Origin: Deltaproteobacteria bacterium
GTDB lineage: Bacteria > Myxococcota_A > UBA9042
Assembly: GCA_016218865.1 (NCBI GenBank)
Contig: JACRCU010000115.1
Location: 1-40,730, forward strand
Length of the DNA: 40,730 nt
Direction of reading: 5' to 3'
Positions 1,010 through 25,926 of this stretch are shown here, in pieces. A model generated the notes under the pieces. That model was given only the letters and a program-made list of their open reading frames with translations, did not search any database and was not told where the DNA came from. The position numbers were made by a program, and so were the translations under genes. Positions within the stretch are counted from its first letter, which is position 1, and each line of letters opens with the position of its first letter.

Positions 1010-2908
<1,899 letters not shown>

Positions 2909-2935
2909 TCAACTGGTTGTGACCCGAATGCGCCT

Positions 2936-2963
2936 CGGCCCGTACTGCTCCCGTACGGGACCG
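2936..2963 (+). other. Hairpin between dnaK and dnaJ
   Basis: CCCGTAC (2939-2945) and GTACGGG (2953-2959) form a 7-bp stem with a 7-base loop. Flanking CGG/CCG can extend it across one bulged A. No T-run follows, so it may be a processing or stability element or a weak attenuator rather than a complete terminator. Confidence 0.4.
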
Positions 2964-3033
2964 GGGCGCGGGCGTACCAGGGGCGCGGCCCCCGCATCCG
3001 CTGAAACTGTGCCGCCCACCTTGCAGGTTGTCC

Positions 3034-4005: not shown

Positions 4006-4161
4006 GCCCCAGCCTGCGCAGCGGAACCCCGACAGCAGCGAAGGACCGGTGAAGCATCGGCGGGCTGCCGCGTTGCACACAGCGGCGGCCGTTGACCCGG
4101 GCGCCACGCTTGGACCACGCTACGGCCCTGGGCGCACGCCCCCCTGCACGAGGATCAGCCG

Positions 4162-5046: not shown

Positions 5047-5053
5047 GGTCGCG

Positions 5054-6268
5054 ATGGCCACGCCTGCCGGCAACAACTCCAACGCGAAGAGTCGCATCCA
5101 GGCGATTCTGCTGGTGCTTTTGCTCGGCGGCGTGCTGACAGCGCCGTTCCTGTTGCTGCGACCGGGCGCGGTGTGCGGCGACGGCGTCTGCGACCGCGAG
5201 GGCGGCGAGTCGTTCCTGGTCTGTGCCGCGGACTGCCCTTCGGCCTGCGGCGACGGCTACTGCGACCCGGCCAAAGAGACGGTGGCGACCTGCCCGGCCG
5301 ACTGCAAGACCGTGTGCGGCGACGGCCGCTGCGACGCTCCGGTCGAGACGGCGGCCACCTGCCCCAAGGACTGCGCGGTCTGCGGCAACGGCAAGTGCGA
5401 GCCGCCGGCCGAGACCGCCGCCAGCTGCCCCAAGGACTGCAACACCTGCGGCAACGGCAAGTGCGACGCCGGCGAGACGGCCAAGACCTGCCCGGTCGAC
5501 TGCCAGCCGGCCGGCAAGTGCCGCGACCCGGCCTTCCGCAAGATGCTGGTGCGCATCGTCAAGGACTGCGAGGGCGCCTGCGGCTTCGAGGCCAAGAACC
5601 CGGTGGTGGGCCTGGAACTCGACCAGTTCAAGACCATCTTTGCCAGCAAGGGCGACCCGGGCTACGGCACCTACTTCGCGCTGTTCGGCTGCAACGTGTT
5701 CAACGCCGAGGGCAGCGACTGCAAGGGCTTCGACTCGTTCTACGCCGAGCCGGCCAAGTGCCCTGTCGACAACGCCTTCGAGTGCGCCACCCGCGCCACC
5801 GACACCTGCAACCCGGCCGGCGCCCAGGGCCGCTGCCAGAAGTACAGCAAGGTCATCGAGGACGAGTTCCGCGCCTTTGCGAAGAAGTGGAAGAACGCCA
5901 AGTACTTCATCTTGCTCGGCACCGCCAGCCGCTCGGGCAACGACTCGGCGGGCGGCAAGGAAACCATGAGCGTGGGCAACCAGAAGCTGGCGCTGAAGCG
6001 CGCGGCCAGCCTGGAGTCGCTGCTGTCGCGGCTGCGGCCCGAGTTCGCCAGTCGCGGCGACCACTTGGACGGCAAGGCCTACAAGGTGGCGCTGGACAAC
6101 ACCAAGCAGTTCTTCGACACGCCCGAGTTCGGCGCGATGATCAAGACCCAACTTGATGCGATGGGTCGGCCGGACCGCGGCTTTACGCCCACCACGGCCA
6201 ACGCCGTCAACCGCTCGGTGTTCGTGCTGGCGATCGAGTGCGATCTGTCGGCCGAAGGCATCGAGTAG
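5054..6268 (+). CDS. Membrane-anchored Cys-repeat protein with OmpA-like C-terminus
   Basis: A 404-residue protein with one N-terminal membrane segment (about residues 15-35) and no clear cleavage site, so it is probably anchored in the inner membrane facing the periplasm. Residues 40-153 hold five tandem Cys-rich units of about 22 residues, each with the pattern CG(D/N)GxC...ET...CPxDC. The remaining 250 residues contain further paired Cys. Near residues 290-330 there is a segment resembling OmpA/MotB peptidoglycan-binding domains (FILLGTASRSG, then NQKLALKRAASLESLL). The repeats may bind calcium or be disulfide-stapled; this is inference. It starts 7 bases after the preceding gene and ends 15 bases before creB, suggesting one operon. 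Confidence 0.6.
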   Translation: MATPAGNNSNAKSRIQAILLVLLLGGVLTAPFLLLRPGAVCGDGVCDREGGESFLVCAADCPSACGDGYCDPAKETVATCPADCKTVCGDGRCDAPVETAATCPKDCAVCGNGKCEPPAETAASCPKDCNTCGNGKCDAGETAKTCPVDCQPAGKCRDPAFRKMLVRIVKDCEGACGFEAKNPVVGLELDQFKTIFASKGDPGYGTYFALFGCNVFNAEGSDCKGFDSFYAEPAKCPVDNAFECATRATDTCNPAGAQGRCQKYSKVIEDEFRAFAKKWKNAKYFILLGTASRSGNDSAGGKETMSVGNQKLALKRAASLESLLSRLRPEFASRGDHLDGKAYKVALDNTKQFFDTPEFGAMIKTQLDAMGRPDRGFTPTTANAVNRSVFVLAIECDLSAEGIE

Positions 6269-6283
6269 AACACGCAACTCCGC

Positions 6284-6946
6284 ATGAAACCAGCGATCCT
6301 GCTCATCGAGGACGAGGCGGCGATCGCCGACACCTTGGTCTACGCCCTGCAGGCCGAGGGGTTCGAGGTGGTGTGGCGCGCCCTGGGGCAGACGGGCCTG
6401 GCGGCGCTGGCCGAGCGCGACTTCGACCTGGCGATCCTGGACGTGGGGCTGCCCGACGGCAGCGGCTTCGAGCTGTGCAAAGAGATCCGTAAAACCTCTG
6501 AGATCCCGCTGATGTTCTTGACGGCGCGCGCCAGCGAGATCGACCGCGTGGTGGGCCTGGAGATCGGCGCCGACGACTACGTGGCCAAGCCCTTCAGCCC
6601 GCGCGAGGTGTGTGCGCGGGTCAAGACCATCCTGAAGCGCAGTCGCGGCACGGCGGCCCGAACGGCGCTGTTCCAGGTGGATGCTGGGCGAATTCGCTAT
6701 TGCGGCCAGCTGCTTTCGCTGACCCGCTACGAGCTGGGGCTGCTCCAGGTGCTGCTGAGTCAGCCGGGGCGGATCTTCTCGCGCGACCAGCTGATGGACC
6801 GGGTGTGGGGCGACGCCGACGCCTTCGACCGCACCGTGGACACCCACATCAAGACCCTGCGCGCCAAGCTGCACCAGATCGACCCGCAGCGCGATCCCAT
6901 CGCCACCCACCGCGGCTTGGGCTACAGCCTGCAGCTGACGCCGTGA
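6284..6946 (+). CDS. creB: OmpR-family response regulator CreB
   Basis: A 220-residue DNA-binding response regulator. The receiver domain (1-115) has the acidic pair ED at 9-10, phospho-acceptor Asp53 in AILDVGLPDGSG, and the Lys of the AKPFSP motif. The C-terminal winged helix (about 125-218) has the recognition segment RTVDTHIKTLRAKL. The CreB name is supported by context more than by sequence: a kinase gene overlaps it and creD follows, as in the E. coli creBC-creD locus, and boxes of the CreB type (TTCAC-N6-TTCAC) precede creD. No strong ribosome site is seen before the ATG, so translation may be coupled to the upstream gene. Confidence 0.9.
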   Translation: MKPAILLIEDEAAIADTLVYALQAEGFEVVWRALGQTGLAALAERDFDLAILDVGLPDGSGFELCKEIRKTSEIPLMFLTARASEIDRVVGLEIGADDYVAKPFSPREVCARVKTILKRSRGTAARTALFQVDAGRIRYCGQLLSLTRYELGLLQVLLSQPGRIFSRDQLMDRVWGDADAFDRTVDTHIKTLRAKLHQIDPQRDPIATHRGLGYSLQLTP

Positions 6947-8379
6947 AGATCAGCCTAAGAATTCTGCTGGGCTACTTCCTGATCGTCGGGGTGGCGGCCT
7001 GGTTCGTGCTCAACATCTTCATGGACGAGGTCAAGCCGGGCGTGCGCCAGGCCATGGAGGACACGCTGGTCGACACGGCCCAGGTGCTGGCGCGGTTGGC
7101 GGCGCCGGATCTGCAAGCGGGGCGCATCGGCCAGGGCGCGTTTGCCCAGGCGCTGCAAGGGCTGGACCAAGAGCCGCTGCGGGCGCGGGTGTGGAATTTC
7201 GCCAAGAACAAGGTCAACACCAGGGTGTACGTGACCGACGCCCGCGGCATCGTGCAGTTCGACTCGGCCGGGCAGGCGGTGGGGCAGGACTTCTCGCGCT
7301 GGAACGACGTGTACCTGACCCTGCGCGGGCGCTACGGCGCGCGGAGCACCCAGAGCCAGCCCGGCGACGCCGACTCGACCGTGATGCACGTGGCGGCGCC
7401 GATCCGCAGCGGCGAGGCCATCATCGGCGTGCTGACCGTGGTCAAGCCCAACCTGGCGGTGGCGCCGTTCATCGAAAACGGCCGGCGCAAGATCTTCAGG
7501 GCCGGCCTGTGGTTGCTGGGCCTGTCGCTGCTCATCGGCGCGGCGGTCGCGCTGTGGATCACCGGCTCGCTGCGGCAGCTGCTGAACTATGCCGAGCGGG
7601 TGACCCGCGGCGAAAAGGCCGAGCCGCCGGACCTGGGCAGCAGCGAGCTGGCGACCCTGAGCCGGGCGCTGGCCGGAATGCGCGAAAAACTGGAGGGCAA
7701 GCAGTACGTCGAGCGCTACGTGCACACCCTGACCCACGAGATGAAAAGTCCGCTCACGGCGATTGGCGCCTCGGCCGAGCTGCTCCAAGGTGAAGTGCCG
7801 ACCGCGGATCGTCAGCGATTTTCCACTGCTATCGCCGAGCAGGCCGAGCGGCTGCGCCAGTTGATCGACCGCATGCTGGGGTTGGCGCAGGTCGAGTCGC
7901 GCCAAGGACTGCAGCAGCCAGTGGCGATCGACCTGGCCGCGCTGTGCGCCGAGGTGCTGGCGACGCGGGAAGCCCAGCTGCACACCCGGCAACTTACTGT
8001 GACAACTCAGGTTCACGGCCCGTGCACCCTGTACGGCGACCGGTTCCTGCTGGCGCAGGCGCTGGCCAATCTGCTGGACAATGCCATCGACTTCAGCCCG
8101 CCGGGCGGCGCGATCGACCTGCAGCTGCAGGGCGACGACACGCAAGTCCAGGTGCAGATGGCAGATCGCGGCGCCGGCGTGCCGGACTACGCCCAGGCCC
8201 GGGTTTTCGAGCGCTTCTACTCGCTGGAGCGGCCGGCCACGGGCAAGAAAAGCACCGGCCTGGGCCTGCCTTTTGTGCGCGAAGTGGCGCAGTTGCACGG
8301 TGGCTCGGCTGCGCTGGCCAACCGACCGGACGGTGGGGCGGTGGCGACGCTGCTGCTGCCGCGCGCTCCGAAGACCTGA
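6943..8379 (+). CDS. creC: Sensor histidine kinase CreC
   Basis: A 478-residue membrane sensor kinase; E. coli CreC has 474. Membrane segments at about 6-26 and 184-206 bracket a periplasmic sensing domain of about 155 residues. A HAMP-like linker follows, then the dimerisation helix with phospho-acceptor His265 in LTHEMKSPL, the N-box NLLDNAIDFSPPGG, and G-boxes including ADRGAGVP and KSTGLGLPFVREV. The start is the GTG at 6943, which overlaps the creB TGA (GTGA), so the two are translationally coupled. It phosphorylates CreB in the known system. The signal sensed here is unknown. Confidence 0.92.
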   Translation: MKISLRILLGYFLIVGVAAWFVLNIFMDEVKPGVRQAMEDTLVDTAQVLARLAAPDLQAGRIGQGAFAQALQGLDQEPLRARVWNFAKNKVNTRVYVTDARGIVQFDSAGQAVGQDFSRWNDVYLTLRGRYGARSTQSQPGDADSTVMHVAAPIRSGEAIIGVLTVVKPNLAVAPFIENGRRKIFRAGLWLLGLSLLIGAAVALWITGSLRQLLNYAERVTRGEKAEPPDLGSSELATLSRALAGMREKLEGKQYVERYVHTLTHEMKSPLTAIGASAELLQGEVPTADRQRFSTAIAEQAERLRQLIDRMLGLAQVESRQGLQQPVAIDLAALCAEVLATREAQLHTRQLTVTTQVHGPCTLYGDRFLLAQALANLLDNAIDFSPPGGAIDLQLQGDDTQVQVQMADRGAGVPDYAQARVFERFYSLERPATGKKSTGLGLPFVREVAQLHGGSAALANRPDGGAVATLLLPRAPKT

Positions 8380-8402
8380 ACGTTTTCGCGAGGGCAGATC
8401 AC

Positions 8403-8440
8403 TTCACCCTGACTTCACCGTCGGCTCATCGTGGCTTCAC
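8403..8440 (+). promoter_or_regulatory. CreB box (cre-tag) direct repeats upstream of creD
   Basis: TTCAC at 8403-8407 and again at 8414-8418, with a 6-base spacer, exactly matches the TTCAC-N6-TTCAC CreB-binding site described in E. coli. A third TTCAC lies at 8436-8440, 22 bases (2 x 11) after the second, and a degenerate CTCAT sits at 8425-8429, so four half-sites are spaced by 11 bases on one face of the helix. The array lies 45 bases before the creD ATG. No clear -10 was recognised downstream. Confidence 0.75.
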
Positions 8441-8484
8441 CGGGCCACGCCAGACTGGGGCTCCAACCTGCCAAGGAGTCCACC

Positions 8485-9909
8485 ATGTCCCAAGAAATCT
8501 ACAACAAGCTGCTCGCCGATTCGCCGTTGCCGCCTCCCCCTCCGCCCCTGCCGCCGCGGCCGACCAAGCCCAAGGCGAGCGGGCCGCTGGCCAAGCTCCT
8601 CGTCATCGCCGCAGTGATGCTGGCGCTGCTGGTGCCGCTGCAGATGATCGACGGGCTCGTCCGCGAGCGCCAGGCGCAGAGCCGCTCGGTGGTGCAAGAG
8701 ATCGCCGAAAGTGCCAGCGGGGCCCAGCGGTTGCGCGGTCCGCTGCTGGTGGTGCCGTACCGCGAGCGCAAGGTGGTGGCCGAAGAAGTCGTGGTCCAGC
8801 AAGACGGCAAGGCCAACACCGTGGTGCGCAACAAGGAGCTGTTCGAGGACCACGAGCTGGTATTGCAGCCGGCCACTCTGCAGGTCACCGGCGCGGTCAA
8901 GACCGACACCTTGTACCGCGGCTTGTACCAGGCCCTGACCTTCACCTCGCAGACCAAGCTGACCGGCACCTTCGAATTGGCGCTCGTCGATCTGGCGCGC
9001 GATCCCAGCGTCACCATTGGCGAAGTGCGGCTGGCCGTGGGGGTCGCCGATCCGCGCGGCATCCGCAACACGCCGCGACTGCGCTGGCGCACGACCGACG
9101 TGGAATTCCTGCCCGAGACCGGCGTGGGCAAGCTGGGCCGCGGCATCCATGCGCCCATCCCCTTGAGCCAGTTGGGCACTTCGGGCACCGCCACCTTCTC
9201 GCTGGACCTGGAGCTGTTCGGCACCGAGGCGCTGTCCTTCAGCCCGGTCGGCAAGGACACCCGCGTGCAAGTGCAGGCGAACTGGCCGCATCCATCGTTC
9301 TTTGGGCGCGCGCTGCCCAGTCACCGCGAGGTGCGCGACACCGGCTTTTCGGCCGACTGGCACAGCACCTGGCTCAACGCCACCGGCGGGCGCATCGCCA
9401 GGGACGCCGTGGACGACGATCCGGAGTTCGGCGTGCGCTTCATCCAGCCGGTCGACCAGTACCTGCAGACCGACCGGGCCATGAAGTACGCGATCCTGTT
9501 CGTGGTCTTGACCTTCGCGGGGTTCTTCTTGTTCGAGGTGCTGCGCCGCCTGCGCGTCCACCCCATGCAATACAGTCTGGTGGGCGCGGCGTTGGCGATG
9601 TTCTACTTGTTGCTGGTGGCGCTGTCGGAACACCTTGAGTTCGCCGTGGCTTACGCGATCGCCAGCGCGGCCTGTGTCGGTCTCATCGGCTTCTACGTGG
9701 CGCACGTGCTGCAGCACTGGCTGCGCGGCCTTGGCTTTGCCGGTTTGCTGGGGCTGCTGTACGGAACCCTGTATGGGCTGCTGCAGTCCGAGGACAACGC
9801 CCTGCTGCTGGGTGCCGGCCTGCTGTTCGCCGCCCTGGCCGCGGTGATGGTGCTGACGCGGCGCCTGGACTGGTACAACCTGGCCGCGCCGGCGGTCGAA
9901 GCGCCTTAG
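8485..9909 (+). CDS. creD: Inner-membrane protein CreD
   Basis: A 474-residue member of the CreD family (E. coli 450), an inner-membrane protein that is the main CreBC target and is linked to colicin E2 tolerance and envelope integrity. A cytoplasmic Pro-rich N-terminus (14-28) precedes a membrane segment at about 34-54. A large periplasmic domain (55-330) follows, then five or so membrane helices. The family signature RVHPMQYSLVGAALAMFYLL is present, with ALSEH just after it. The ATG at 8485 has an AAGGAG site 6 bases upstream. It ends one base before the stop codon of the convergent oxidoreductase gene on the other strand. Expression is probably driven by CreB through the boxes at 8403-8440. 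Confidence 0.93.
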   Translation: MSQEIYNKLLADSPLPPPPPPLPPRPTKPKASGPLAKLLVIAAVMLALLVPLQMIDGLVRERQAQSRSVVQEIAESASGAQRLRGPLLVVPYRERKVVAEEVVVQQDGKANTVVRNKELFEDHELVLQPATLQVTGAVKTDTLYRGLYQALTFTSQTKLTGTFELALVDLARDPSVTIGEVRLAVGVADPRGIRNTPRLRWRTTDVEFLPETGVGKLGRGIHAPIPLSQLGTSGTATFSLDLELFGTEALSFSPVGKDTRVQVQANWPHPSFFGRALPSHREVRDTGFSADWHSTWLNATGGRIARDAVDDDPEFGVRFIQPVDQYLQTDRAMKYAILFVVLTFAGFFLFEVLRRLRVHPMQYSLVGAALAMFYLLLVALSEHLEFAVAYAIASAACVGLIGFYVAHVLQHWLRGLGFAGLLGLLYGTLYGLLQSEDNALLLGAGLLFAALAAVMVLTRRLDWYNLAAPAVEAP

Positions 9910-12117
9910 CTAAGCGGCGATCGGCCGACCGAAGTGGGTGCGCGTCTGGATGCCGGCCGCCTTGAGCAGCGCCGTGGGCAGGCTGCCGCCGATCGAAACC
10001 AGGACGTCGTCGGCTTGGAACTCTGCGCCATCCTTCAGCTTGACCCGGTCGGCCAGGATCTCGGTCAGACCCGTATTCAAGTGCAGCGCAATGCGCCCGG
10101 CGGCGACCTGGGCGTCGAGCAGCTCGCGGTTGCGGGCCTTGGCGCGGTCGAACACGTCGCGGCGGTGGATCAGGTGCACCGCGCTGGCACCGGCCGTCGC
10201 GCATGCCAGCGCCGCCTCCAGCGCCGAGTCGCCGCCGCCGACCACGCACACGTGGCGATCGCGCATCTGCTCGGGATCCTGCAGGTTGTAGCTGACGTGC
10301 GGCAGGTCCTCGCCCGGCACCCCCGCGCGCATCGGCGTGCCGCGCCGGCCCAGGCACAGCAGCACCCGCCGCGCCCGCCACTGCTGGCCCTTGGCCTTGA
10401 CCGCGAAGCCCGTTCCGCAGGCATCGGCCTCCAAACCCTCGATCGCGACACCAAAAACGATGTTCGGCTTGTGGGTGGCCTTGAGCATGGCAAAGAAGTC
10501 GACCAGCTCCTCTTTGAACACGTTGAAGAAACGCGCGTTGCCGTGCAGCGGCATGTGCATCGGCGCCGTCATCACCAGCTTGCGGCGCGGGTAGTGGCGC
10601 ACCGCCCCGCCGATGTCCGGCTCCTGCTCCACGGTCAGGTAGTCGAGCCCCTGCTCTTGGGCCGCGAGCGACGCCGCCAGACCGGCCGGACCGGCGCCGA
10701 CGATGAGCAAGTCCAGCATGCCCTCGGGCAGCGCACCGCGGTCGCGCTCGCGGTCGCGGGCAATGAAGCCCACCGCCTGGGTCGCCTGTTCCACGGCGTT
10801 GCGCACCAGGCCCATGCCGGTCAGCTCGCCGGCCAGGAAGATGCCGGGGGTCGAGGCCTCGTAGTTCGGCGCCACGTCAGGGATATCCACGCCGCGCTTG
10901 AGCGTGCCGAACACGAGCGAAATCGCGCCGACCGGACAATTGGCGGCGCAGGCGCCGTGGCCGATGCAGTGGCTGGGCTCGGCGAGCTGGCCGCGGCCCT
11001 CGACCAGCGCCAGGATGTCGCCCTCGGGGCACGAGGCCACGCAAGCCGCGCTGGCCATGCACTTGTTGGGATCGACCCACGGGTGCAGGGTCGGCGGCGG
11101 CTCGGGCGGCGGACCTACGTTCTTGATCTTGGCAGCGGCCTTGCCACGGCGGTACAGCCGGCGCCAGCGACCTTCCCAGGCGCCAAAGCCCGCCAGGATT
11201 GCGACCAGGCCTGCGCCCCATGCCCAGGTTGGCCCGGGCAGATCCCAGCGGTAGCCGTGGGCAAAGGCGCTGCGAATGTGCAAGAAGGCCGTCGCCACCA
11301 TCACCAGCGCCGCCAGAAGGTGGATCAGGCGCCAGCGCCGGAGCAAGGCCGAGGCTGCCGCCGCCAGCGCCAGCTCTTGGCCGGTACGGAGCAGCTCGAT
11401 CGCCAAGTGACGCACCTGCTGCCGGCGCTCGCCCTGCAACTCGGCCGCCTCGCGCCGCAGCCAGCGCGCCACCCACAGCGGCCCCAGCAGCCGCCGCGCC
11501 GGGCCCAGCAGCAGGTGGACAAAGCCGCGGCGGGCACTGGCCTTGCTCTCGATGCGGGTGCGCTCCGCCAAGCTCTCCAGCGCTTCGCGGCCTTCGGGCC
11601 ACAGTTCGCGCAGCTCGACCAGCAGCGCCGAGCCGCGTCCGCGCAGCCCGTCCGGGTCTTCCTGGCCAAAGGCGGTGTGCGGCACCAGCGCGTAGATGTA
11701 GCGACCGATGACGCCCGTGGCGAGCAGCGCGATCACCGCCAGCGCCGACCAGCGCGCCGCCTCGCTGGTCATGCGAAAGTTGGCGTGCAGAAGCAGCATT
11801 CCGCCGCCCAGCAGGCCAAAGAACACGTGCGCGCTCATCCAGTGGCGCAGGTGGCCCCACTTGTGCCACGAGCGCAGCCGCCGGCGCAGACCGTAGGCCA
11901 AGTTGGCCAGGAACATCGCGACCGCCAGGGTACCCAGGGCGCGGCCCACCGGCCCGGCCGAGCGCCACCGGTCGTACCACGGATGGTCCAGCTGGGCGTC
12001 GCCGACCACCTCGTAGAAGTCGCGGGCGTAGTGGTAGACCGCGCCGACCAACAGCGCCACCAGCGCGAACAGCAGCAGGTCGATGGTGGTCTGGCGCAAG
12101 CGCCGCGGCGGAGCCAT
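9910..12117 (-). CDS. Membrane b-type/ferredoxin/FAD-NAD(P)H oxidoreductase fusion
   Basis: A 735-residue fusion and last gene of the cytochrome operon. Residues 1-320 contain about six hydrophobic helices with His pairs inside or next to them (for example H97 and H111), resembling a diheme b or ferric-reductase-like membrane domain. Residues 345-400 form a ferredoxin-like domain. Its two Cys motifs read C353-x5-C359-x3-C363-P and C384-x5-C390-x3-C394-P, so the usual second Cys of each is Ser356 and His387. Residues 465-735 are a thioredoxin-reductase-like FAD/NAD(P) module with LLIVGAGPAGLAAS and VCVVGGGDSALEAA. It would pass electrons between NAD(P)H or another flavin donor and the membrane. 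It starts 15 bases after the beta-barrel gene, with GAGG upstream. Haem binding is inferred; the Fe-S and FAD assignments are good. Confidence 0.85.
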   Translation of the reverse strand: MAPPRRLRQTTIDLLLFALVALLVGAVYHYARDFYEVVGDAQLDHPWYDRWRSAGPVGRALGTLAVAMFLANLAYGLRRRLRSWHKWGHLRHWMSAHVFFGLLGGGMLLLHANFRMTSEAARWSALAVIALLATGVIGRYIYALVPHTAFGQEDPDGLRGRGSALLVELRELWPEGREALESLAERTRIESKASARRGFVHLLLGPARRLLGPLWVARWLRREAAELQGERRQQVRHLAIELLRTGQELALAAAASALLRRWRLIHLLAALVMVATAFLHIRSAFAHGYRWDLPGPTWAWGAGLVAILAGFGAWEGRWRRLYRRGKAAAKIKNVGPPPEPPPTLHPWVDPNKCMASAACVASCPEGDILALVEGRGQLAEPSHCIGHGACAANCPVGAISLVFGTLKRGVDIPDVAPNYEASTPGIFLAGELTGMGLVRNAVEQATQAVGFIARDRERDRGALPEGMLDLLIVGAGPAGLAASLAAQEQGLDYLTVEQEPDIGGAVRHYPRRKLVMTAPMHMPLHGNARFFNVFKEELVDFFAMLKATHKPNIVFGVAIEGLEADACGTGFAVKAKGQQWRARRVLLCLGRRGTPMRAGVPGEDLPHVSYNLQDPEQMRDRHVCVVGGGDSALEAALACATAGASAVHLIHRRDVFDRAKARNRELLDAQVAAGRIALHLNTGLTEILADRVKLKDGAEFQADDVLVSIGGSLPTALLKAAGIQTRTHFGRPIAA

Positions 12118-12132: not shown

Positions 12133-13830
12133 TTAGAGCCGATAGGTGAGGGTGGCGGTGGCGTCGAGCCAGTTGCTCTGCGCCGGCACGTCGGTCCACA
12201 GCGTCTGGCGGCCGCCGACCGACACGCCGACGATCCACGGATAGCGGCCCCAGTCCATGCCCGCGCGCACGTCCAGCGCTTCGGCGCTGCTGCTGCTCGT
12301 CTCGACGCGGTCGTGCGACCAGCGCAGGCGGGCGTGCCAGCGCCAGCGCGGCCCCGGCGACCAGTCCGCGCCGGCCGAGAGCGAGCCGCCCGACAGATAG
12401 GGACCAGTCTGCAACACTGCGACAAGTTGACTGTTCCAGTTCGCCCCGGGCCAATTCGGCCGCACGGCTTGCAGGGTGCCGCCAAAGCGCCAGCTTTCCC
12501 ACGGATCTTCGGACGCGGTCAGGCTGCTCCACAGGGCGGTCGAGGTCTGCCAGCCGCGCCAGGCCGGCATTTCGAGCCAGCCCGCCAGCGCGTGGCTGGT
12601 CGCGGTACTCCAGCCCTGGTTGGGCAGCAACCACGCCAACTCCCTGGTGAGTTCGCTGCGCAGGAAGGTGTAGCGCAGGCGCGGCCGCCAGGCACCCAGC
12701 CAGGCCGGGGCGTAGTCGACCATGCCGCGGAGCGGTCGCCAGCCTGCTGTAGTGGGCGCCTGGTCGGCCCAAGCCGTGCCGCTCAGGTCGGCCTGACCGG
12801 CGGCCCACTGCAAGTCCCCTTGCAGCAAGCCCAAACGTGGGTGCTCGGCCCGCCACAGCACGGCGCCCAGCTGGCGATCCCAGCCGCCCGCGACCTTGCC
12901 CGTCGACCAATCGGCGCCGATCACACCTTGCCAGCCGGCCAGGGTACCGCGCAGCCGCGCCGCGCCGCCCACCCGCCACGCATCCTGGCGGAAGCCGGTG
13001 CTGACGATCGACGGCAACAGCCCGCCAAAGCCGGTGATTTCCAGCTGCGGCAGTGGCCGCACCAACAGGGTGGCGCCGTCCACCGTCGCCGAGCCCGCGC
13101 CCTCGGGCACCCAGACCCGGCCCAGCGCCGCGCCCCAGGCCCGCGCGGCAGTAGGATCGACCGACAGCTGGGCCTGTCGCACCTGCAGCGCCCGCCGCTC
13201 GTTCGAGCCCGGCTGCGCCAGCCACTGCTCGACCCACACCGCCGCATCGTGCCGCCACGACAGCGGCGAGCCGAAAATACCCTGCCACTGCAGGTTGTTG
13301 CCGATTCGCAGCAGCGCCCACTGCTCGCCCTGGCCCCCGCGCAGCCCGGCCGCGACCACCGTCACCTGGCCGTCCAGCCGCCGATCCGGGTCCTGGCCGC
13401 GCGGACGCGGGTCGTCGATCCACGGCGTCTGCTGGCGCGACCAGGCCTGCCACTGCTCGGCCAGGGCCCGCTCGCGGGCGGCGTCCTTGGCGTCCTTGGC
13501 TGGCGCGACCTTCCACGGCTCGCGCGGCGCGGCCGCCACCGGGGCACTCCCCACGGGCACACTGACCTTTTGATGTGGCTTAGCGCCCGCCGCTTGGTCG
13601 GACTGCAGGCGGGCGTGCTGTCCGACCACCTCCACCACCTGGAGCGGCCGCCCCTTGGCCACCAGCGTCAATTGGGCGCCTTTCTCCAGGCGCTCGCCGG
13701 GCTCCAGGCGCAAGAACACTTCGCGGCCCGCCGCCGCCACGCCCACCACCTCGGCGGCCGCGGCCACCTGGGGCAGTCCGAGACCCGCTGCCAGCAGCAA
13801 GCCGGCCGTGTTGGTGGGCAGTCGTCTCAT
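12133..13830 (-). CDS. Predicted outer-membrane beta-barrel of the cytochrome operon
   Basis: A 565-residue exported protein. The signal peptide covers residues 1-27 (ending AAAAEV). A small beta-rich domain of about 65 residues follows, then a charged linker (about 85-155). The remaining 400 residues are rich in alternating aromatic/Gly strands typical of a porin-like barrel (repeated W, Y and GxxxxW patterns), and the last strand ends TLTYRL. By position it resembles the MtrB/PioB/OmbB-type barrels that hold multihaem cytochromes across the outer membrane, although no family similarity could be established. The ATG at 13830 overlaps the TGA of the preceding cytochrome gene (ATGA), so its translation is coupled. 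The barrel call is inferred from strand pattern and context. Confidence 0.65.
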   Translation of the reverse strand: MRRLPTNTAGLLLAAGLGLPQVAAAAEVVGVAAAGREVFLRLEPGERLEKGAQLTLVAKGRPLQVVEVVGQHARLQSDQAAGAKPHQKVSVPVGSAPVAAAPREPWKVAPAKDAKDAARERALAEQWQAWSRQQTPWIDDPRPRGQDPDRRLDGQVTVVAAGLRGGQGEQWALLRIGNNLQWQGIFGSPLSWRHDAAVWVEQWLAQPGSNERRALQVRQAQLSVDPTAARAWGAALGRVWVPEGAGSATVDGATLLVRPLPQLEITGFGGLLPSIVSTGFRQDAWRVGGAARLRGTLAGWQGVIGADWSTGKVAGGWDRQLGAVLWRAEHPRLGLLQGDLQWAAGQADLSGTAWADQAPTTAGWRPLRGMVDYAPAWLGAWRPRLRYTFLRSELTRELAWLLPNQGWSTATSHALAGWLEMPAWRGWQTSTALWSSLTASEDPWESWRFGGTLQAVRPNWPGANWNSQLVAVLQTGPYLSGGSLSAGADWSPGPRWRWHARLRWSHDRVETSSSSAEALDVRAGMDWGRYPWIVGVSVGGRQTLWTDVPAQSNWLDATATLTYRL

Positions 13831-15374
13831 TCCTTGCCGTCGGGATGGCACTTGACACAGGCCGCGCTGGAGTACACGTAGCCGCTCACTTCGCCAGCGT
13901 GCTTGCTGTTGGTCTTGCTGGCGGTGTGGCAGCCGCCGCTGATGCAGGAGAATGCAGCAAAATTAGCCGGATTGGTGTGGCATTTGTTGCAGGTCAGCTT
14001 GTGCTTGCCGCTGGTGATGGGGAATTGGTGCGCCGGATAGCCGGCCGGGCTCCAGCCCGCGGTGGTGTGGCAGGTCTGGCAAGTGGTCGGCAGTCCAAGT
14101 GATTTGTGGTTCGGGTTGGTGGCGGCGTTGTAGTCGGGCTGGTGGCAGCCGCTGCAGACCTTGGACGGCTTGACCCCGGGGCTGGTGTGGCACGACTCGC
14201 ACGGCGCGGTGGCGTGCTTGTTGGTCAGGGGGTAGTACTGGTTGTGATCGAATCCGCTGGCCGGCTGCCAGCCTGTAGTGCTGTGGCACGACTCGCAGGT
14301 GGTGGGGAAGCCTACCTTGCTGTGGTTCGGGTTGGTGGTGCCCTGGTACGCCGGCAGGTGGCAGCCGCTGCAGACCTTGGTGGGCTTGTCGCCGGGGGTC
14401 TGGTGGCAGCCCCCACAGGCGGCGGTCTTGTGCTTGCCGGTGAGCGGGAAGAACTTGTCGTGGTCGACGTTGGTCGCCGGCTGCCAGGCGCTGGTGCTGT
14501 GGCAGGTCTCGCAAGTCTGTGGAAATCCTACCGTTGCGTGGTTGGGGCTGGTGGTTGCCTGGTATTGCTGCAGGTGGCACGAGGCGCACACCTTGGCCGG
14601 CTTCATCCACGGGTCCGAGTGGCAGTTCTCGCACGCCGTGGTCAGGTGCTTGCCGGTCAGCGGGTAGGCCAGGTCGTGGTCGAACCCGGGCGCCGGTTGC
14701 CAGGCAAACGTGTTGTGGCACTGGGCGCAATCGCTCGAAAACCCAACATTTTTGTGGGTCGGCTTGCTCGTCGCGTCGTAGTTGCCCTGATGGCAGCCGC
14801 TGCACACCTTGGGCGGCTGGTCGCCGGGGGTCTTGTGGCAGGCGTCGCACGCTAGACCCTTGTGCTTGCCAGTCAGCGGGTAGAACAGGTCGTGGTCGAT
14901 GCCCACCGCGGGCTTCCAGGCCAAGGTGCTGTGGCAATTCTGGCAGGTTTTTGGGGTGTTCTGCTGCACGTGGTTGGGCTGCTGGGCACCTTCGTAGTCC
15001 TTGAGGTGGCAGCTCACGCAGGCCGAGTCGAGCGTGACCGAAAAATCGCCGTGGCACTGCGCGCAAGCCGGCCCCACGTGCTTGCCCGTCAGCGGCCAGA
15101 TCTCTTGGTGATCGAAACCCGTCGCCGGCTGCCAAGCGGTGTTGCTGTGGCAGGTTCCGCACTTGAGACCGAATTGCAGGACCTTGTGCGGCGGCTTGGA
15201 CGAGTTCTGGTACTCGTGCAGGTGGCAGCCGTAGCAGGTCTGCCCCGCCACCGTTGGCGTCGCGGCACTCTGGGAACTGGTCGATTGGCAGCCGGCGAGG
15301 AACGCGAGCAGCGCCAGGATCACCAGCGCCGCCGCCCCCTTTCGCCGTTCATTGGTGCTTGCCGTGACAGTCAT
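13827..15374 (-). CDS. 20-haem lipoprotein cytochrome c
   Basis: A 515-residue cytochrome with 19 CxxCH motifs and one CX4CH motif, all potential covalent c-haem sites. The N-terminus has a hydrophobic stretch and the lipobox LAGC (lipidated Cys29), so it is a lipoprotein, probably on the outer membrane. Residues 47-476 are six tandem units of 72 residues (the last 70) with three haem motifs each and a conserved pattern of the type DHxxxYPLTGKH, whose His residues are likely axial ligands. The start at 15374 lies 26 bases inside the end of the upstream cytochrome gene; the stop overlaps the barrel gene start. It probably forms the surface end of a haem wire. Localisation and electron-transfer role are inference. 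Confidence 0.93.
   Translation of the reverse strand: MTVTASTNERRKGAAALVILALLAFLAGCQSTSSQSAATPTVAGQTCYGCHLHEYQNSSKPPHKVLQFGLKCGTCHSNTAWQPATGFDHQEIWPLTGKHVGPACAQCHGDFSVTLDSACVSCHLKDYEGAQQPNHVQQNTPKTCQNCHSTLAWKPAVGIDHDLFYPLTGKHKGLACDACHKTPGDQPPKVCSGCHQGNYDATSKPTHKNVGFSSDCAQCHNTFAWQPAPGFDHDLAYPLTGKHLTTACENCHSDPWMKPAKVCASCHLQQYQATTSPNHATVGFPQTCETCHSTSAWQPATNVDHDKFFPLTGKHKTAACGGCHQTPGDKPTKVCSGCHLPAYQGTTNPNHSKVGFPTTCESCHSTTGWQPASGFDHNQYYPLTNKHATAPCESCHTSPGVKPSKVCSGCHQPDYNAATNPNHKSLGLPTTCQTCHTTAGWSPAGYPAHQFPITSGKHKLTCNKCHTNPANFAAFSCISGGCHTASKTNSKHAGEVSGYVYSSAACVKCHPDGKE
13947..15236 (-). repeat. Six tandem 216-bp (72-residue, three-haem) units
   Basis: Inside the 20-haem gene, units begin at each of CYGCH, CVSCH, CSGCH, CASCH, CSGCH and CSGCH. 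The first five are exactly 72 codons with no insertion or deletion; the sixth is 70. This is clear internal duplication of a three-haem module. Confidence 0.9.
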
Positions 15375-16386
15375 AGCATGCCCCCGAGTTCCAAGAGTAG
15401 TTGCCAACTTCGCCGTGCTCCTTTGCCATCGCCGCCTGGTTGTGCTCGTGGCAGCTGGTGCAAATCAAGGTGTTGCGGTCGTACCCTCCGCCGTGGCAGG
15501 CGGCACAGCCTAGCCCGGCGTGCTCGCCCGAGCTGATGCGGTAGAAGCCGTCGTGCCAGGTGGCCTTGAGCACATGCCAGCCCAGCGCTGTATGACAGTT
15601 GTCGCATGTGGTCGAAAAGTTCATTTGTTTGTGATCGGGGTGGGCGGTGGCGGTCAGTGCGCCGTGGCAACCGACGCAGGCGCCGCTCTTGCCCTTGAAA
15701 AGGCCGCCGCCGTGGCAGGTATCGCAGCTCAGCTGGCCGTGCTTGCCGTCCAGGGGCCACCAGACGGCGTGGTTGACCCGCGCCGGACTCCAGGCAAAGG
15801 TGCCGTGGCAGGTCTGGCAACCGGGGCCAAAGCCCGGCGAGCGGTGGTCCGGCATTTTGACGGCCAGGGCCAGGTTCTGGTGGCAGTCCCCGCACACGCT
15901 GGGCGTTCCGCGGTACACGGTGCCGCCCAGCCGGGTGTGGCAGGCGCGGCAGTCGGTGGCGGTGTGGGCGCCGGTCAGGGGGAAGCGCGACGTCTCGTGC
16001 GAGGGCAGGCTGCGCGGCGCCAGCCAGTTGGTGGCCGAGTGGCAGTTGGCGCAGGTTTCGCCCAACTCGCCGCGGTGCGGATCGCGGTGGCATTGTTCAC
16101 AGGTTTTGGGGACCTTGGCCTGGCTGCGCTCCGCCGGGCGGTGGCAGCCGCTGCACGGGGCGCGAGCGTGGGCGCCGGTGAGCGGGTTGCCGGTCTTGGC
16201 GTGATCGAAGACCACGTTGTCGCTCAGCCGCGACCAACCCGCGGTCTGGTGGCAGGGGGCACAGGCCCAGGGATCGCCGCCGGTCGCCGTCGGCTTGGCT
16301 TTGGGTTCGGCAGCTTGCAGCGGGGCCGCGAGCGCAATCCACGCCAGCGCCGCCGCGATGACCCCGACGAGTGCGCGCGCCGTCAT
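15349..16386 (-). CDS. 13-haem periplasmic cytochrome c
   Basis: A 345-residue exported cytochrome with a signal peptide (residues 1-25, ending LQAAEP) and 13 CxxCH motifs, from CAPCH near residue 40 to CYDCH close to the C-terminus. Several modules follow the form HxxxxxPLxGxHxxxxCxxCH, as in the two neighbouring cytochromes. There is no lipobox or transmembrane anchor, so a soluble periplasmic or complex-bound protein is likely. The frame is open far upstream, but the ATG at 16386 is chosen because it directly precedes the signal peptide and overlaps the stop of the 23-haem gene (ATGA). It probably links the 23- and 20-haem proteins. Confidence 0.92.
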   Translation of the reverse strand: MTARALVGVIAAALAWIALAAPLQAAEPKAKPTATGGDPWACAPCHQTAGWSRLSDNVVFDHAKTGNPLTGAHARAPCSGCHRPAERSQAKVPKTCEQCHRDPHRGELGETCANCHSATNWLAPRSLPSHETSRFPLTGAHTATDCRACHTRLGGTVYRGTPSVCGDCHQNLALAVKMPDHRSPGFGPGCQTCHGTFAWSPARVNHAVWWPLDGKHGQLSCDTCHGGGLFKGKSGACVGCHGALTATAHPDHKQMNFSTTCDNCHTALGWHVLKATWHDGFYRISSGEHAGLGCAACHGGGYDRNTLICTSCHEHNQAAMAKEHGEVGNYSWNSGACYDCHGKHQ

Positions 16387-18236
16387 GGTTGCCTCCGCGG
16401 CAGGTGCGGGTTGCGGTGGCACTGCTCGCACGCGGTCACGCCGATGCGATAGAAGGTGACGGCGCGGCCCTCGGCGGCCGGTCGGTCCGGGTGGCACTTG
16501 CCGCAGGCCACCTGTGCGTGGCGACCGTCCAGGGCAAAGCGGGTGCGGCTGTGGTCGAACTGGGCGATCTTGAAGGTTGCGTCGGGGCGGTGGCAGTCGT
16601 CGCAGTTGCGCACGGGCTCGCTGGACACGAACTGGCCGGCGTGGCGATCGGCGTGGCAGCCCTGGCAACTCTGCTTGCCACCTGCAAATTGCACGGGCTG
16701 GTCGGGTGCCGGCCGCAAGTGGCAGGCCTGGCAGGTGGGCTTGGCGTGGCCGCCGACCAGGGCAAAGCGGGTCTTGTTGTGGTCGAAGCGCGACGCCGGG
16801 ACGAAGGCCAGGTTGGTGTGGCAGCTCTCGCACGGCCGGACCTTGGCGTCGGTGCGGAACTGGCCGCCGTGCACGTCCTTGTGGCAGCTGGCGCAGTCCT
16901 GCGGCAGGTCGCGCAACTGGGCGACTTTGCTACCGTCGGGCGCGATGTCACCGCCCTTTGGCTGGGGGCGGTGGCAGCCCGCGCACGCCACCACCCGGTG
17001 GGCGCCTTCCAGCGGGTAGCGCGCCTGGCCGTGCTGGTCCACGCCGTAGTCGGCGGGCGCGAAGCCCTGCACCGTGTGGCAGGTCTCGCAGCGATCGCCC
17101 TTGGCCACCGACTTGAACGGTCCGCCGTGGGGATCTTTGTGGCAGTCCAGGCAGGTGTCGCCGTCGCGGCCCAGGTACTTCTTGGCGTAACTGCCGCTTC
17201 CGGCGTGGCAGCTGCTGCACGCGACCTTCTTGTGCAGGCCCACCAGCGGGTAGTGGGTGCTGTCGTGGTTCCACGGAGCGCCCGACAGCATGCGAAAGTC
17301 GAAGAAACCGTGACACTTCTTGCAGTCCTGGCCAAAGCGCCGCTCGTGCGGGTCCTTGTGGCAGGCGGCGCACGCCGCGTCGACCGGACCAAAGCCCGGC
17401 TTGCCGCCGGCCTTGGCCGCGCCCGCGCTGGGTTTGTGGCACTTTTCGCAAGCAATTTCGGCATGTTGCCCAAGAAGGGGCAGGCGCGTGCGCTGGTGCA
17501 GCTCCAGGGCCGAGCCACGGCTGACCTTGGCCCAGTCGTCGTTGCCGTGGCAGTCCTTGCAGTCCTTGCCGCCAGCGTGGCCGGCCTTGGGCTCGCGGTG
17601 GCAGTCCGAACAGGCGGCGAAGGCGATGCCGCGGAATTTGCCTTTAATGCCCGTCGCTTCGTGGCACTTCTGGCAGGCGACGTTCTTGTGCTTGCCCACC
17701 AGCTTCATGCGCGCGGTGTTGTGGTCGAAGCGGTCGGCGCCGGCGAATTTCTTTTCGCTGTGGCAGGCTTCGCACTTGCTGCCCAGGCTGGGCTGGTGGC
17801 TGTCGCGGTGGCAGCTGCCGCAGGTGGTCTTCAGGCCCATCCAGTGCTGCGGCAGGGTGTGGCAGGCCTTGCAGGCGACGATGGCGTGGGCCGACTGCAA
17901 CACGAAGCCCGTCTCGCCGTGGTCGAAGGTCTTGGGCGGCGTCCCGCGCACCCTGGCAAAGTCGCGCCCGCGGTGATCGCGGTGGCAGCCGGCGCAGGTC
18001 TTCTTGGCGGCCTGGGCCTGGTTCCAGTGGTACTTGGAAGTCTTGGCGACCTTGTGGCACTCCAGGCACTTGTCGTCACTGGCGCCCTTGCCTTCGCTGT
18101 GGCACTTCTCGCACTGCTGGTCGTACTTGGCGTGGGCGCTGGCCAGCGGACCGGGCGAGGTGAACTCCTGTCCCTGCGCAGCAGCGCTCCAGAGCAACGC
18201 GACCGCCGTCACCAGCAGGCAAATCCGTAACGGCAT
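16383..18236 (-). CDS. 23-haem periplasmic cytochrome c
   Basis: A 617-residue exported cytochrome and first gene of the five-gene operon. The signal peptide covers residues 1-22 (ending AAAQGQE). It contains 23 CxxCH motifs, from CEKCH near residue 42 to CEQCH near the C-terminus. The module FDHxxTRFxLxGxHAxxxCxxCH recurs, as in large geobacterial cytochromes, with CHxDxHxGQF modules between. The many extra His residues provide candidate axial ligands. No lipobox or membrane helix beyond the signal is seen. It should act in the periplasm, taking or delivering electrons along the stacked haems. The cytochrome assignment is certain; partners and potentials are unknown. Confidence 0.94.
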   Translation of the reverse strand: MPLRICLLVTAVALLWSAAAQGQEFTSPGPLASAHAKYDQQCEKCHSEGKGASDDKCLECHKVAKTSKYHWNQAQAAKKTCAGCHRDHRGRDFARVRGTPPKTFDHGETGFVLQSAHAIVACKACHTLPQHWMGLKTTCGSCHRDSHQPSLGSKCEACHSEKKFAGADRFDHNTARMKLVGKHKNVACQKCHEATGIKGKFRGIAFAACSDCHREPKAGHAGGKDCKDCHGNDDWAKVSRGSALELHQRTRLPLLGQHAEIACEKCHKPSAGAAKAGGKPGFGPVDAACAACHKDPHERRFGQDCKKCHGFFDFRMLSGAPWNHDSTHYPLVGLHKKVACSSCHAGSGSYAKKYLGRDGDTCLDCHKDPHGGPFKSVAKGDRCETCHTVQGFAPADYGVDQHGQARYPLEGAHRVVACAGCHRPQPKGGDIAPDGSKVAQLRDLPQDCASCHKDVHGGQFRTDAKVRPCESCHTNLAFVPASRFDHNKTRFALVGGHAKPTCQACHLRPAPDQPVQFAGGKQSCQGCHADRHAGQFVSSEPVRNCDDCHRPDATFKIAQFDHSRTRFALDGRHAQVACGKCHPDRPAAEGRAVTFYRIGVTACEQCHRNPHLPRRQP

Positions 18237-18391: not shown

Positions 18392-19657
18392 TCAGTCGAT
18401 GCGGAAGTAGAAGCTCTTGCCCACGCGGTGGATGGCGCCGCGCTGCAGGATCTTCTCGTCGGCGGGCACGGCGCGCCAGCGGCTGCGCTCCTTGACCTCC
18501 AGGTCGGTGCGCGCCTCGATGCGAATGTCGTTGCCGTGGGCGTGCAGCACCAGGACGCCGCCGCTGCCGCGCCGCACGGTCATGCCGCTGCCGTCAAAGG
18601 TGCAGCTGGCCGAGCGGTAGAAGCCGCGCCGCCCGCCCGGCACCGAGTACAGCGGCCGACCGCCGTCGCGCGCCAGATGGCTCTCTTGCGCACCCACGAA
18701 CAGCACCGCCGACTTGGGGAAGGCGTGCGGCTTCAGGAAGCCCACCAGGATGACGATGAACAGCGCCAGCCCGATCGCTCCGGCCAAGTAGGGCCAGTAG
18801 CAGAACCACATCGGGTTGGCGGTCACCGCGGCCTTGAGCACCACGGTGGCGGCGCGGTCGGCCTCGACCAGACCCTTGCCCACCGGCGCCAGCACCACCG
18901 CCTCCTGGGTATCGGCCGGCACGGGCTGGCAGCGCGGGGCGGCGTAGCAGAGTTCCAGCGGCTTGTCGGCGGCCCAGGCAATGGCGATGGCCGGCGCGCC
19001 GTGCTCCAGCGGATAGAGTGGCGACCCAGTGCCTTGGCGCACGTGGACCCGCAGTTCGGGCCAGCCCTTCAAGCCCCCCGGCTGGGTCGCCGGCCGCGAG
19101 AGCGCCAGCTTCTGACCGCCGCGCAGCTGCTGGCTGCCGCTCAGGTCCACTGGCTTGCAGTGCTCGTCCAGGGCGCAACCCGACAAGACCTGGGCAAAAT
19201 CGATGCCTGCGCCGGCCTTGAGCCGCACGTTGGGCAGCACGGTGATGGTGATGACCGGGCCCTGTTGCAGCGCGCCACCCACCTTGGCCTGCAGCCTGGC
19301 GTGCAGCGTGCCGCTGGCGGGCGCGGTCCATTGCAGTTTGAAATCGCCACCCTCGCGCGTCAGCGGCGTGGTCTTGCCGTCGACCTCCAGCTCCAGCGAC
19401 TCCAGCTGGCCCTTGAGCCACGCGTCGGACACGGGCTGGCCGTCGCTGCGGCGAATCTTCAGAGTGCGCGCAAGGTTGGTGCCTTCCAGCACCTCCGCCG
19501 GGAGGGGCGGCGGCGGCAGGTTCCAGCCGTCTTGCAGCGCTTCGCCGGCAGCCCAGGCCGGGGCCGCGGTCAGGGGCGCCAGCGCGCTGGCCATGACCAA
19601 GACGGCCAGGCAAACCAGGAGTCTCGGCAGTGCTCGTTGGCAGGCCCTGGGCAACAT
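18392..19657 (-). CDS. Membrane protein of unknown function
   Basis: A protein of 421 residues not recognised as a known family. It has a signal-like hydrophobic segment (about residues 12-36), then an Ala/Pro-rich stretch and a beta-rich periplasmic region of about 250 residues, including an Ig-like segment and Cys residues in the pattern of secreted proteins. One membrane helix follows (about residues 300-322), then a basic, beta-rich cytoplasmic tail of about 95 residues with a weakly FHA-like end (RVGKSFYF). The ATG at 19657 is chosen; the frame extends 22 codons further but runs through DNA next to the tRNA. It lies 155 bases upstream of the cytochrome operon on the same strand and could be co-transcribed or merely adjacent. 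Confidence 0.7.
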   Translation of the reverse strand: MLPRACQRALPRLLVCLAVLVMASALAPLTAAPAWAAGEALQDGWNLPPPPLPAEVLEGTNLARTLKIRRSDGQPVSDAWLKGQLESLELEVDGKTTPLTREGGDFKLQWTAPASGTLHARLQAKVGGALQQGPVITITVLPNVRLKAGAGIDFAQVLSGCALDEHCKPVDLSGSQQLRGGQKLALSRPATQPGGLKGWPELRVHVRQGTGSPLYPLEHGAPAIAIAWAADKPLELCYAAPRCQPVPADTQEAVVLAPVGKGLVEADRAATVVLKAAVTANPMWFCYWPYLAGAIGLALFIVILVGFLKPHAFPKSAVLFVGAQESHLARDGGRPLYSVPGGRRGFYRSASCTFDGSGMTVRRGSGGVLVLHAHGNDIRIEARTDLEVKERSRWRAVPADEKILQRGAIHRVGKSFYFRID

Positions 19658-19693
19658 GCTGGGATCCAGCGCAAACGCGGTGTTTGGGTGCGG

Positions 19694-19765
19694 AGCGGGC
19701 GACGGGATTCGAACCCGCAACATCCAGCTTGGGAAGCTAGCGCTCTACCGTTGAGCTACGCCCGC
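19694..19765 (-). tRNA. tRNA-Gly (anticodon CCC)
   Basis: The minus strand folds into a full cloverleaf: acceptor GCGGGCG pairs with CGCCCGC, the D arm is GCTC/GAGC, the anticodon stem is CTAGC/GCTGG (with one G-U pair) around loop TTCCCAA, and the T arm has GCGGG-TTCGAAT-CCCGT. Loop positions 34-36 are CCC, reading the Gly codon GGG. The discriminator base is T. The 3' CCA is not encoded (CCG follows), so it must be added by CCA transferase. Confidence 0.95.
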
Positions 19766-25778: not shown

Positions 25779-25926
25779 GGGAATTCGGCCGGTGGCCGTG
25801 CAGGTCGCGGCGCGCTTGGCTGGCGCCGTTGCCGGGCCGCGGTTATCCTAGGGAACAGCCGGCAGTTGCGCGGGCGGTGGGTAGCGGGCGGTGCCAACAC
25901 TGCCCGTTTGGGCACCGATGACGGAC

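What the first reader, a model, noticed from the sequence alone, without database searches (positions are those of the whole stretch)
13947..15236. Six exact 72-residue three-haem units form a periodic haem array
The first five units are all precisely 72 codons with no indels and the sixth is 70; each carries three CxxCH and the same DHxxxYPLTGKH-type ligand pattern. Such strict periodicity implies selection for repeating geometry, as in a haem wire or filament, and growth by tandem duplication.
Basis: partly seen in the sequence, partly recalled or inferred. Interest (0 to 1): 0.7.

Follow-up and report, generated by a model that had tools for sequence, protein, structure and literature searches.

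The report
Variable-length haem array of surface conduit
The gene makes a lipid-anchored protein carrying 20 haems in six similar three-haem blocks, very probably the outer, length-variable end of a protein wire that moves electrons through the cell envelope; relatives have from none to at least seven blocks while the partner cytochromes next to it stay the same.

Summary
On the minus strand (13827-15374) lies a 515-aa lipoprotein with 19 CxxCH plus one CX4CH. Its first five units are exactly 72 aa and the sixth 70. Every unit examined in this family has three haem motifs and at least three further His, enough for bis-His ligation.

It is the third gene of an apparent operon: 23-haem cytochrome, 13-haem cytochrome, this array, a 22-strand beta-barrel, and an inner-membrane protein with two HX13H motifs, 4Fe-4S and FAD domains. 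That is a porin-cytochrome conduit resembling the published PCC3 type. The best reading is a surface-anchored extension of the conduit.

Across relatives the 23- and 13-haem parts keep their number, while array units number 0 (gene absent), 1, 2, 3, 4, 6 or 7. Last units form one clade and interior units cluster within arrays; two unit pairs with 95-98% nucleotide identity are recent duplications. Gain and loss of interior units is supported.

The exact 72 is a lineage property, uniform within an array but different elsewhere, so periodicity partly reflects descent. There is no evidence of a polymeric filament. AlphaFold of the array failed (pLDDT 56), so haem geometry is untested. Variable haem number in PCC3 is already published; the unit-level anatomy and evolution appear new.

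The parts
13827..15374 (-). 20-haem array lipoprotein (515 aa, 19 CxxCH + 1 CX4CH)
   Evidence: lipobox LAGC at residues 26-29; Pfam Cytochrome_C7 E 1.8e-19
15237..15374 (-). signal peptide with lipobox and short linker before unit 1
   Evidence: sequence
15021..15236 (-). unit 1 (72 aa); orthologous to unit 1 of same-genus G001 (71% identity)
14805..15020 (-). unit 2 (72 aa); orthologous to unit 2 of G001 (69%)
14589..14804 (-). unit 3 (72 aa); interior, no counterpart in G001
14373..14588 (-). unit 4 (72 aa); interior, no counterpart in G001
14157..14372 (-). unit 5 (72 aa); interior, no counterpart in G001
13947..14156 (-). unit 6, the 'last' type (70 aa, FPITSGKH); last units form one clade
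13830..13946 (-). C-terminal two-haem cap with CX4CH (CISGGCH) and CHPDGKE end
16383..18236 (-). 23-haem cytochrome (617 aa, Sec signal), presumed periplasmic; haem number and most spacings conserved in relatives
15349..16386 (-). 13-haem cytochrome (345 aa, Sec signal): five-haem head + two units of the same kind + cap
12133..13830 (-). outer-membrane 22-strand beta-barrel with N-terminal domain; no Pfam family
   Evidence: AlphaFold pLDDT 78.7, pTM 0.66; Foldseek best matches are outer-membrane barrels
9910..12117 (-). inner-membrane protein (735 aa): two HX13H motifs, 4Fe-4S pair, FAD/NAD(P) domain

Best explanation
The protein is the surface-anchored, extracellular part of a trans-envelope porin-cytochrome conduit. 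Proposed path, in either direction: NAD(P)H or quinone / FAD / 4Fe-4S / two b haems in the inner-membrane protein, then the 23-haem cytochrome across the periplasm, then the 13-haem cytochrome in or at the 22-strand barrel, then the 20-haem array outside, then a mineral, redox molecule or another cell. The array is built from self-sufficient bis-His three-haem units between a fixed first unit and a fixed last unit plus cap. Its length changes in evolution by gain and loss of interior units without altering the rest of the conduit. Shown by sequence or tools: unit anatomy, ligand budget, gene order, barrel model, HX13H/4Fe-4S/FAD domains, conserved partners, variable unit number, duplication pattern. 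Inferred: haem insertion, surface exposure, haem contact between units, electron flow, the external partner.
For: Gene order with 4, 26 and 4 nt overlaps and a 15-nt gap from the 23-haem gene to the inner-membrane protein. Barrel predicted with 22 strands at high confidence in its C-terminal part and matching outer-membrane barrels. Inner-membrane protein has HX13H at 97 and 266, 4Fe-4S and FAD domains. Barrel and inner-membrane homologues lie beside the cytochrome genes in relatives whose locus covers them. Unit His columns: proximal 100%; distal columns 17 and 58 100%, column 45 96% of 57 units. Partner haem number is constant (23, 13, or fused 36) in complete family members while array units vary 0-7. 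Last units form one clade 97/94; the nearest neighbour lies in the same array for 20/28 interior, 3/13 first and 0/16 last units. Emticicia oligotrophica plasmid pEMTOL02 joins the five-haem head of the 13-haem protein to eleven array units and the cap in one 40-haem chain, beside a 23-haem cytochrome (35% identity), a split inner-membrane protein and a barrel-like gene, so head and array can be one continuous chain.
Against: No structure of the array: AlphaFold pLDDT 55.6, pTM 0.25. Surface exposure rests on the lipobox, gene context and analogy; lipoproteins can face the periplasm. Which cytochrome sits in the barrel is a guess, and 22 strands are fewer than I recall for MtrB. No expression or physiological data; the organism is an unnamed draft assembly (82% complete). 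In G003 and G008 the conduit has no array gene, so the array is not essential to it.
Confidence: 0.72

Rival explanations
1. The array mainly stores electrons (a capacitor) rather than conducting them over a distance; unit number tunes capacity, and the protein need not reach far from the membrane.
For: Storage has been proposed for haem-rich PCC3 cytochromes (PMC10734462). Variable unit number and 20 haems fit storage as well as length.
Against: A fixed first unit, fixed last unit and cap, and the head-array fusion in Emticicia look like a chain with defined ends; storage alone does not need these.
Confidence: 0.2
2. Array subunits polymerise into a cytochrome filament like OmcS, OmcE or OmcZ.
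Against: Lipid anchor in nearly all complete homologues, unit number variable inside one chain, enough distal His inside each unit whereas OmcS and OmcE take one from the neighbouring subunit (PMC9473688), and no PDB sequence match to OmcS/E/Z at E up to 1. OmcZ shows that internal ligation alone does not exclude polymers.
Confidence: 0.05
3. The lipoprotein stays in the periplasm (inner leaflet of the outer membrane or the inner membrane) and bridges the periplasm beside the 23-haem cytochrome.
For: A lipobox alone does not define the side; two homologues have Asp at +2 (G011, G015), which keeps lipoproteins at the inner membrane in E. coli (general knowledge).
Against: A 23-haem cytochrome that could already cross the periplasm is present; most homologues have Gln or another residue at +2; PCC3-type clusters with a similar gene set are modelled with an extracellular cytochrome (PMC5566968).
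Confidence: 0.12
4. The uniform 72-aa period only records tandem duplication from one founder and carries no structural meaning.
For: Within-array variance 0.60 against 7.11 overall; the period differs by lineage.
Against: Window units have lost synonymous similarity beyond codon usage and differ at 39-60% of residues, yet contain no net length change across five units; C1-C2 = 25 is held across nearly all arrays. Some constraint on length is likely.
Confidence: 0.3

Closest known systems
PCC3 porin-cytochrome complexes (He et al. 2017, PMC5566968; Gallionellaceae survey 2023, PMC10734462)
   Same: Porin, periplasmic multihaem cytochrome with 21-27 haems, repeat-rich extracellular cytochrome with variable haem number (10-35 in Gallionellaceae, up to 85 elsewhere), inner-membrane protein with two HX13H motifs; models described as long and mostly linear
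   Different: Here an additional 13-haem cytochrome, the inner-membrane protein fused to 4Fe-4S and FAD/NAD(P) domains, and a 22-strand barrel. The 2017 survey reports PCC3 in Alpha-, Beta- and Gammaproteobacteria; relatives here include Bacteroidota. Sequence homology to PCC3 proteins was not testable here
PCC4 porin-cytochrome clusters (PMC5566968)
   Same: Three multihaem cytochromes; a 4Fe-4S partner of the inner-membrane protein in subgroup II
   Different: PCC4 has no extracellular cytochrome, and its cytochromes carry 4, 5 and 10 haems
Emticicia oligotrophica plasmid pEMTOL02 cluster (NC_018749.1, annotated 'cytochrome c3 family protein')
   Same: Homologous 23-haem cytochrome (35% identity), array units and cap (40%), HX13H protein, 4Fe-4S/FAD protein, barrel-like gene
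   Different: Array fused to the head of the 13-haem protein (5 + 33 + 2 = 40 haems) instead of a separate lipoprotein; inner-membrane protein split in two; CcsA gene alongside
GSU1996 dodecahaem 'nanowire' of Geobacter (3OV0; PMC10138318)
   Same: Single chain of tandem three-haem domains, haems 3-5 A apart in GSU1996
   Different: GSU1996 has one His-Met haem per domain and four domains; no sequence match at E up to 1
OmcS / OmcE / OmcZ filaments (PMC9473688)
   Same: Multihaem chains outside the cell
   Different: Non-covalent polymers of small subunits; here one covalent, lipid-anchored chain
MtrCAB / MtoAB
   Same: Porin plus cytochrome conduit, with or without a surface cytochrome
   Different: Decahaem proteins; NCBIfam MtrA-like (TIGR03508) and OmcA/MtrC (TIGR03507) cut-offs are far from reached

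Membership tests
PCC3-type porin-cytochrome complex | Outer-membrane beta-barrel encoded in the cluster | tested here: met
   22 strands, pLDDT 78.7; Foldseek matches to outer-membrane barrels, TM 0.3-0.4
PCC3-type porin-cytochrome complex | Periplasmic multihaem cytochrome with about 21-27 haems | tested here: met
   23 CxxCH, Sec signal; location inferred
PCC3-type porin-cytochrome complex | Extracellular multihaem cytochrome rich in repeats | tested here: inconclusive
   20-haem repeat lipoprotein present; extracellular location not shown
PCC3-type porin-cytochrome complex | Inner-membrane protein with two HX13H motifs | tested here: met
   H97 and H266; but fused to 4Fe-4S and FAD domains
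PCC3-type porin-cytochrome complex | Sequence homology to Sideroxydans or Leptothrix PCC3 proteins | not testable with these tools
   No named PCC3 reference genome was reachable after the single genome-contig scan
c7 / GSU1996 three-haem domain proteins | Match to Cytochrome_C7 profile | tested here: met
   PF14522 E 1.8e-19, 69.7 bits, cut-off 24.8
c7 / GSU1996 three-haem domain proteins | Sequence match to the GSU1996 chain | tested here: not met
   Not among PDB matches at E up to 1; best are 1Z1N (1e-8), UndA, NrfB
OmcS/OmcE/OmcZ filament cytochromes | Sequence match to filament subunits in the PDB | tested here: not met
   None at E up to 1
OmcS/OmcE/OmcZ filament cytochromes | Polymerisation | not testable with these tools
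   Needs microscopy
MtrA/DmsE decahaem family (TIGR03508) | Curated score 192.2 bits | tested here: not met
   29.5 bits (array) and 63.2 bits (23-haem protein)
OmcA/MtrC family (TIGR03507) | Curated score 209.3 bits | tested here: not met
   No hit for the array; 26.3 bits for the 23-haem protein

The most novel reading that the evidence does not exclude
A length-tunable molecular wire: a fixed electron conduit (23 + 13 haems, barrel, inner-membrane module) whose outer arm is extended or shortened during evolution by whole three-haem units between conserved ends, from no arm at all to at least seven units as a lipoprotein or eleven as a fusion, with arm length adapted to the distance or kind of external partner.
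Probability: 0.3. Interest if true: 0.75.

Novelty: new variant of a known kind. Interest (0 to 1): 0.5.

Why it matters
It gives a natural series of one conduit with 0, 1, 2, 3, 4, 6 and 7 three-haem units, and 11 in a cultured Bacteroidota relative, while partner cytochromes stay constant. That makes the open question of whether haem number outside the cell sets reach, rate or storage directly testable. It also shows how such arrays change: interior units are gained and lost, ends are kept. The conduit type is found here in several families of one class and in Bacteroidota records.

Tried and rejected
AlphaFold of the full array gave pLDDT 55.6, pTM 0.25: no geometry was taken from it and it was not searched by fold. 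The apparent 47-haem three-gene fusion in G050 was rejected: the reading passes through what looks like a frame-slipped 13-haem gene into the start and signal peptide of the array gene. phmmer of the array and of the 23-haem protein against the PDB gave nothing. iqtree2 called directly failed; treekit gave the tree. A class-wide search only re-found the same 52 genomes. Plasmid searches for PCC3 relatives gave only Emticicia as a full match. Paper searches for this kind of cluster in Myxococcota or Emticicia gave nothing relevant. Recent duplication within the window gene was rejected: synonymous sites are saturated. The phylum of the window was not established.

Full report
OBSERVATION. The window holds a 515-aa reading frame on the minus strand, 13827-15374 (ATG at 15374), with lipobox LAGC followed by a linker of about 17 residues. 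CxxCH motifs are spaced 25/32/15 five times over, then 25/30, then 15 to a CX4CH (CISGGCH) and 29 to a final CxxCH: six units of 72,72,72,72,72,70 aa and a two-haem cap, 20 haem motifs in all. The finding's coordinates are exact for the six units but omit strand, signal and cap. Spacer order was not reached in 200,000 permutations; shuffled proteins average 0.24 CxxCH. All 57 units extracted from this and 15 related arrays carry three CxxCH and at least three other His; the three distal His columns are filled in 100, 96 and 100%. The window protein has 20 proximal and 20 other His in its mature part (counted), although one of these, near the start of unit 1, is not shared by all relatives, so a terminal haem may lack a second His.

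SURROUNDINGS. Five genes run on the minus strand with overlaps of 4, 26 and 4 nt and a gap of 15 nt: a 23-haem cytochrome (16383-18236), a 13-haem cytochrome (15349-16386), the array, a protein without Pfam family (12133-13830), and an inner-membrane protein (9910-12117). The fourth is predicted by AlphaFold as a 22-strand beta-barrel with an N-terminal domain (pLDDT 78.7, pTM 0.66) and its best Foldseek matches are outer-membrane barrels, with modest TM-scores of 0.3-0.4. The fifth has HX13H motifs at residues 97 and 266, a 4Fe-4S pair and a FAD/NAD(P) domain. This is the gene set of a porin-cytochrome conduit.

RELATIVES. Of 90 genomes searched (the window's own included), 22 carry matches; the class has only 52 genomes held and all were covered. 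Twenty loci were read. The 23-haem and 13-haem proteins keep their haem number and nearly all spacings in the window's family, separately or as a 36-haem fusion in G009, G011 and G012, and G029 of another family also has the 36-haem form. Array units number 6 in the window; 3 in G001 and 2 in G002 of the same genus; 3 in G012 (two copies) and G015; 1 in G018; 2 in G011; 4 and 7 in G009 (two arrays); 6 complete ones and a truncated start at a contig end in G007; 4 in G029; 3 in G040; 4 in G050; 1 in G074; and seven by spacing in G082, of which the script separated five. G003 and G008 have the 13-haem gene followed directly by the barrel, and no array elsewhere in the genome by these searches. 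In G009 the seven-unit array lies apart from any barrel or inner-membrane gene. Most complete homologues start with a lipobox. These are draft assemblies, so collapse of repeats cannot be excluded, but units are usually divergent enough to assemble.

HOW THE ARRAY CHANGES. In a unit tree all 14 last units form one clade (97/94), 1 change against 12.5 in shuffles. The nearest neighbour by identity lies in the same array for 20 of 28 interior units, 3 of 13 first units and 0 of 16 last units. Between the window and G001, units 1, 2 and the last are orthologous (69-71%) and units 3-5 have no counterpart. The tree places window unit 4 outside the pair of unit 2 orthologues (96/81), which points to loss in G001 at least as much as gain in the window. 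Recent gain is seen in G050 units 2/3 (95% nt) and in two Emticicia units (98% nt). In the window gene itself the duplications are old: identical residues share codons about as often as codon usage predicts.

PERIOD. Unit length is uniform within arrays and differs between them (within-array variance 0.60, overall 7.11, none of 20,000 shuffles as low). C1-C2 spacing is 25 in all arrays but G082 (and the single-unit G074), while C2-C3 (30-40) and C3-next (14-18) drift. The exact 72 is therefore a lineage trait inherited through duplication. That five units have kept it while diverging to 40-61% identity still argues for some constraint on length.

A SECOND WAY TO BUILD IT. The 13-haem protein is itself a five-haem head, two units of the same kind and a cap. 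In Emticicia oligotrophica DSM 17448 (Bacteroidota, plasmid pEMTOL02) one 1001-aa, 40-haem protein has the same head, eleven units and the cap, beside a 23-haem cytochrome (35% identity over the full length), a split HX13H protein and 4Fe-4S/FAD protein, and a barrel-like gene. A Bacteroidota metagenome contig has a similar arrangement (L006). Head and array in one chain supports electrical continuity between the 13-haem protein and the array; that is inference, not a measurement.

MECHANISM. Best reading: electrons pass between the inner-membrane module, the 23-haem and 13-haem cytochromes, and the surface array, whose units provide a covalent chain of bis-His haems. By analogy with GSU1996 (12 haems, 12 nm by the title of its structure paper cited in PMC8227773; 3-5 A contacts, PMC10138318) a 20-haem chain could reach roughly 20 nm; this is an estimate, not a result. 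Direction, partner and location are not shown.

KNOWN OR NEW. PCC3 (PMC5566968) has a porin, a periplasmic and a repeat-rich extracellular cytochrome of varying haem number, and an HX13H inner-membrane protein; long, mostly linear models and variable length are published (PMC10734462). The window cluster works like PCC3 and may be a member; sequence homology could not be tested. It differs by the 13-haem protein and the fused 4Fe-4S/FAD domains. What I did not find published is the unit-level anatomy: conserved ends, variable interior, no array gene in some conduits, and the head-fused alternative. The library searched is not complete.

Tandem growth: supported. Haem wire: plausible. Filament: not supported. 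Strict period as proof of selection: weakened.

Noticed in passing
L057 (NC_018749.1 78424-97347), genes at 2876-11572: Emticicia oligotrophica plasmid pEMTOL02 carries a complete conduit cluster with a 40-haem protein, next to a CcsA cytochrome c maturation gene; annotated only as 'cytochrome c3 family protein'.
   Followed up: partly
L043 (G009) 4796-6553: A second, seven-unit array lipoprotein in the same genome as a four-unit one, without barrel or inner-membrane gene nearby.
   Followed up: partly
window 13830-13946 and caps of the arrays in family f1: The penultimate haem motif is CX4CH in the array cap of the window's family, but CxxCH in other families and in the 13-haem protein's own cap.
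   Followed up: partly
window 18392-19723 (-): 443-aa protein with signal sequence and one apparent membrane segment, no family match, directly upstream of the 23-haem gene but not found beside it in the related loci read.
   Followed up: partly
window 25891-28851 (+): Protein with a MopE-type metal-binding motif followed by a 626-aa protein without any Pfam family.
   Followed up: no
window 4162-5046 (+): Stand-alone protein matching the C-terminal module of glucodextranase (PF09985), downstream of DnaK and DnaJ-like genes.
   Followed up: no
window 8431-9909 (+): CreD inner-membrane protein, convergent with the conduit operon, near an OmpR-type response regulator at 6284-6946.
   Followed up: no
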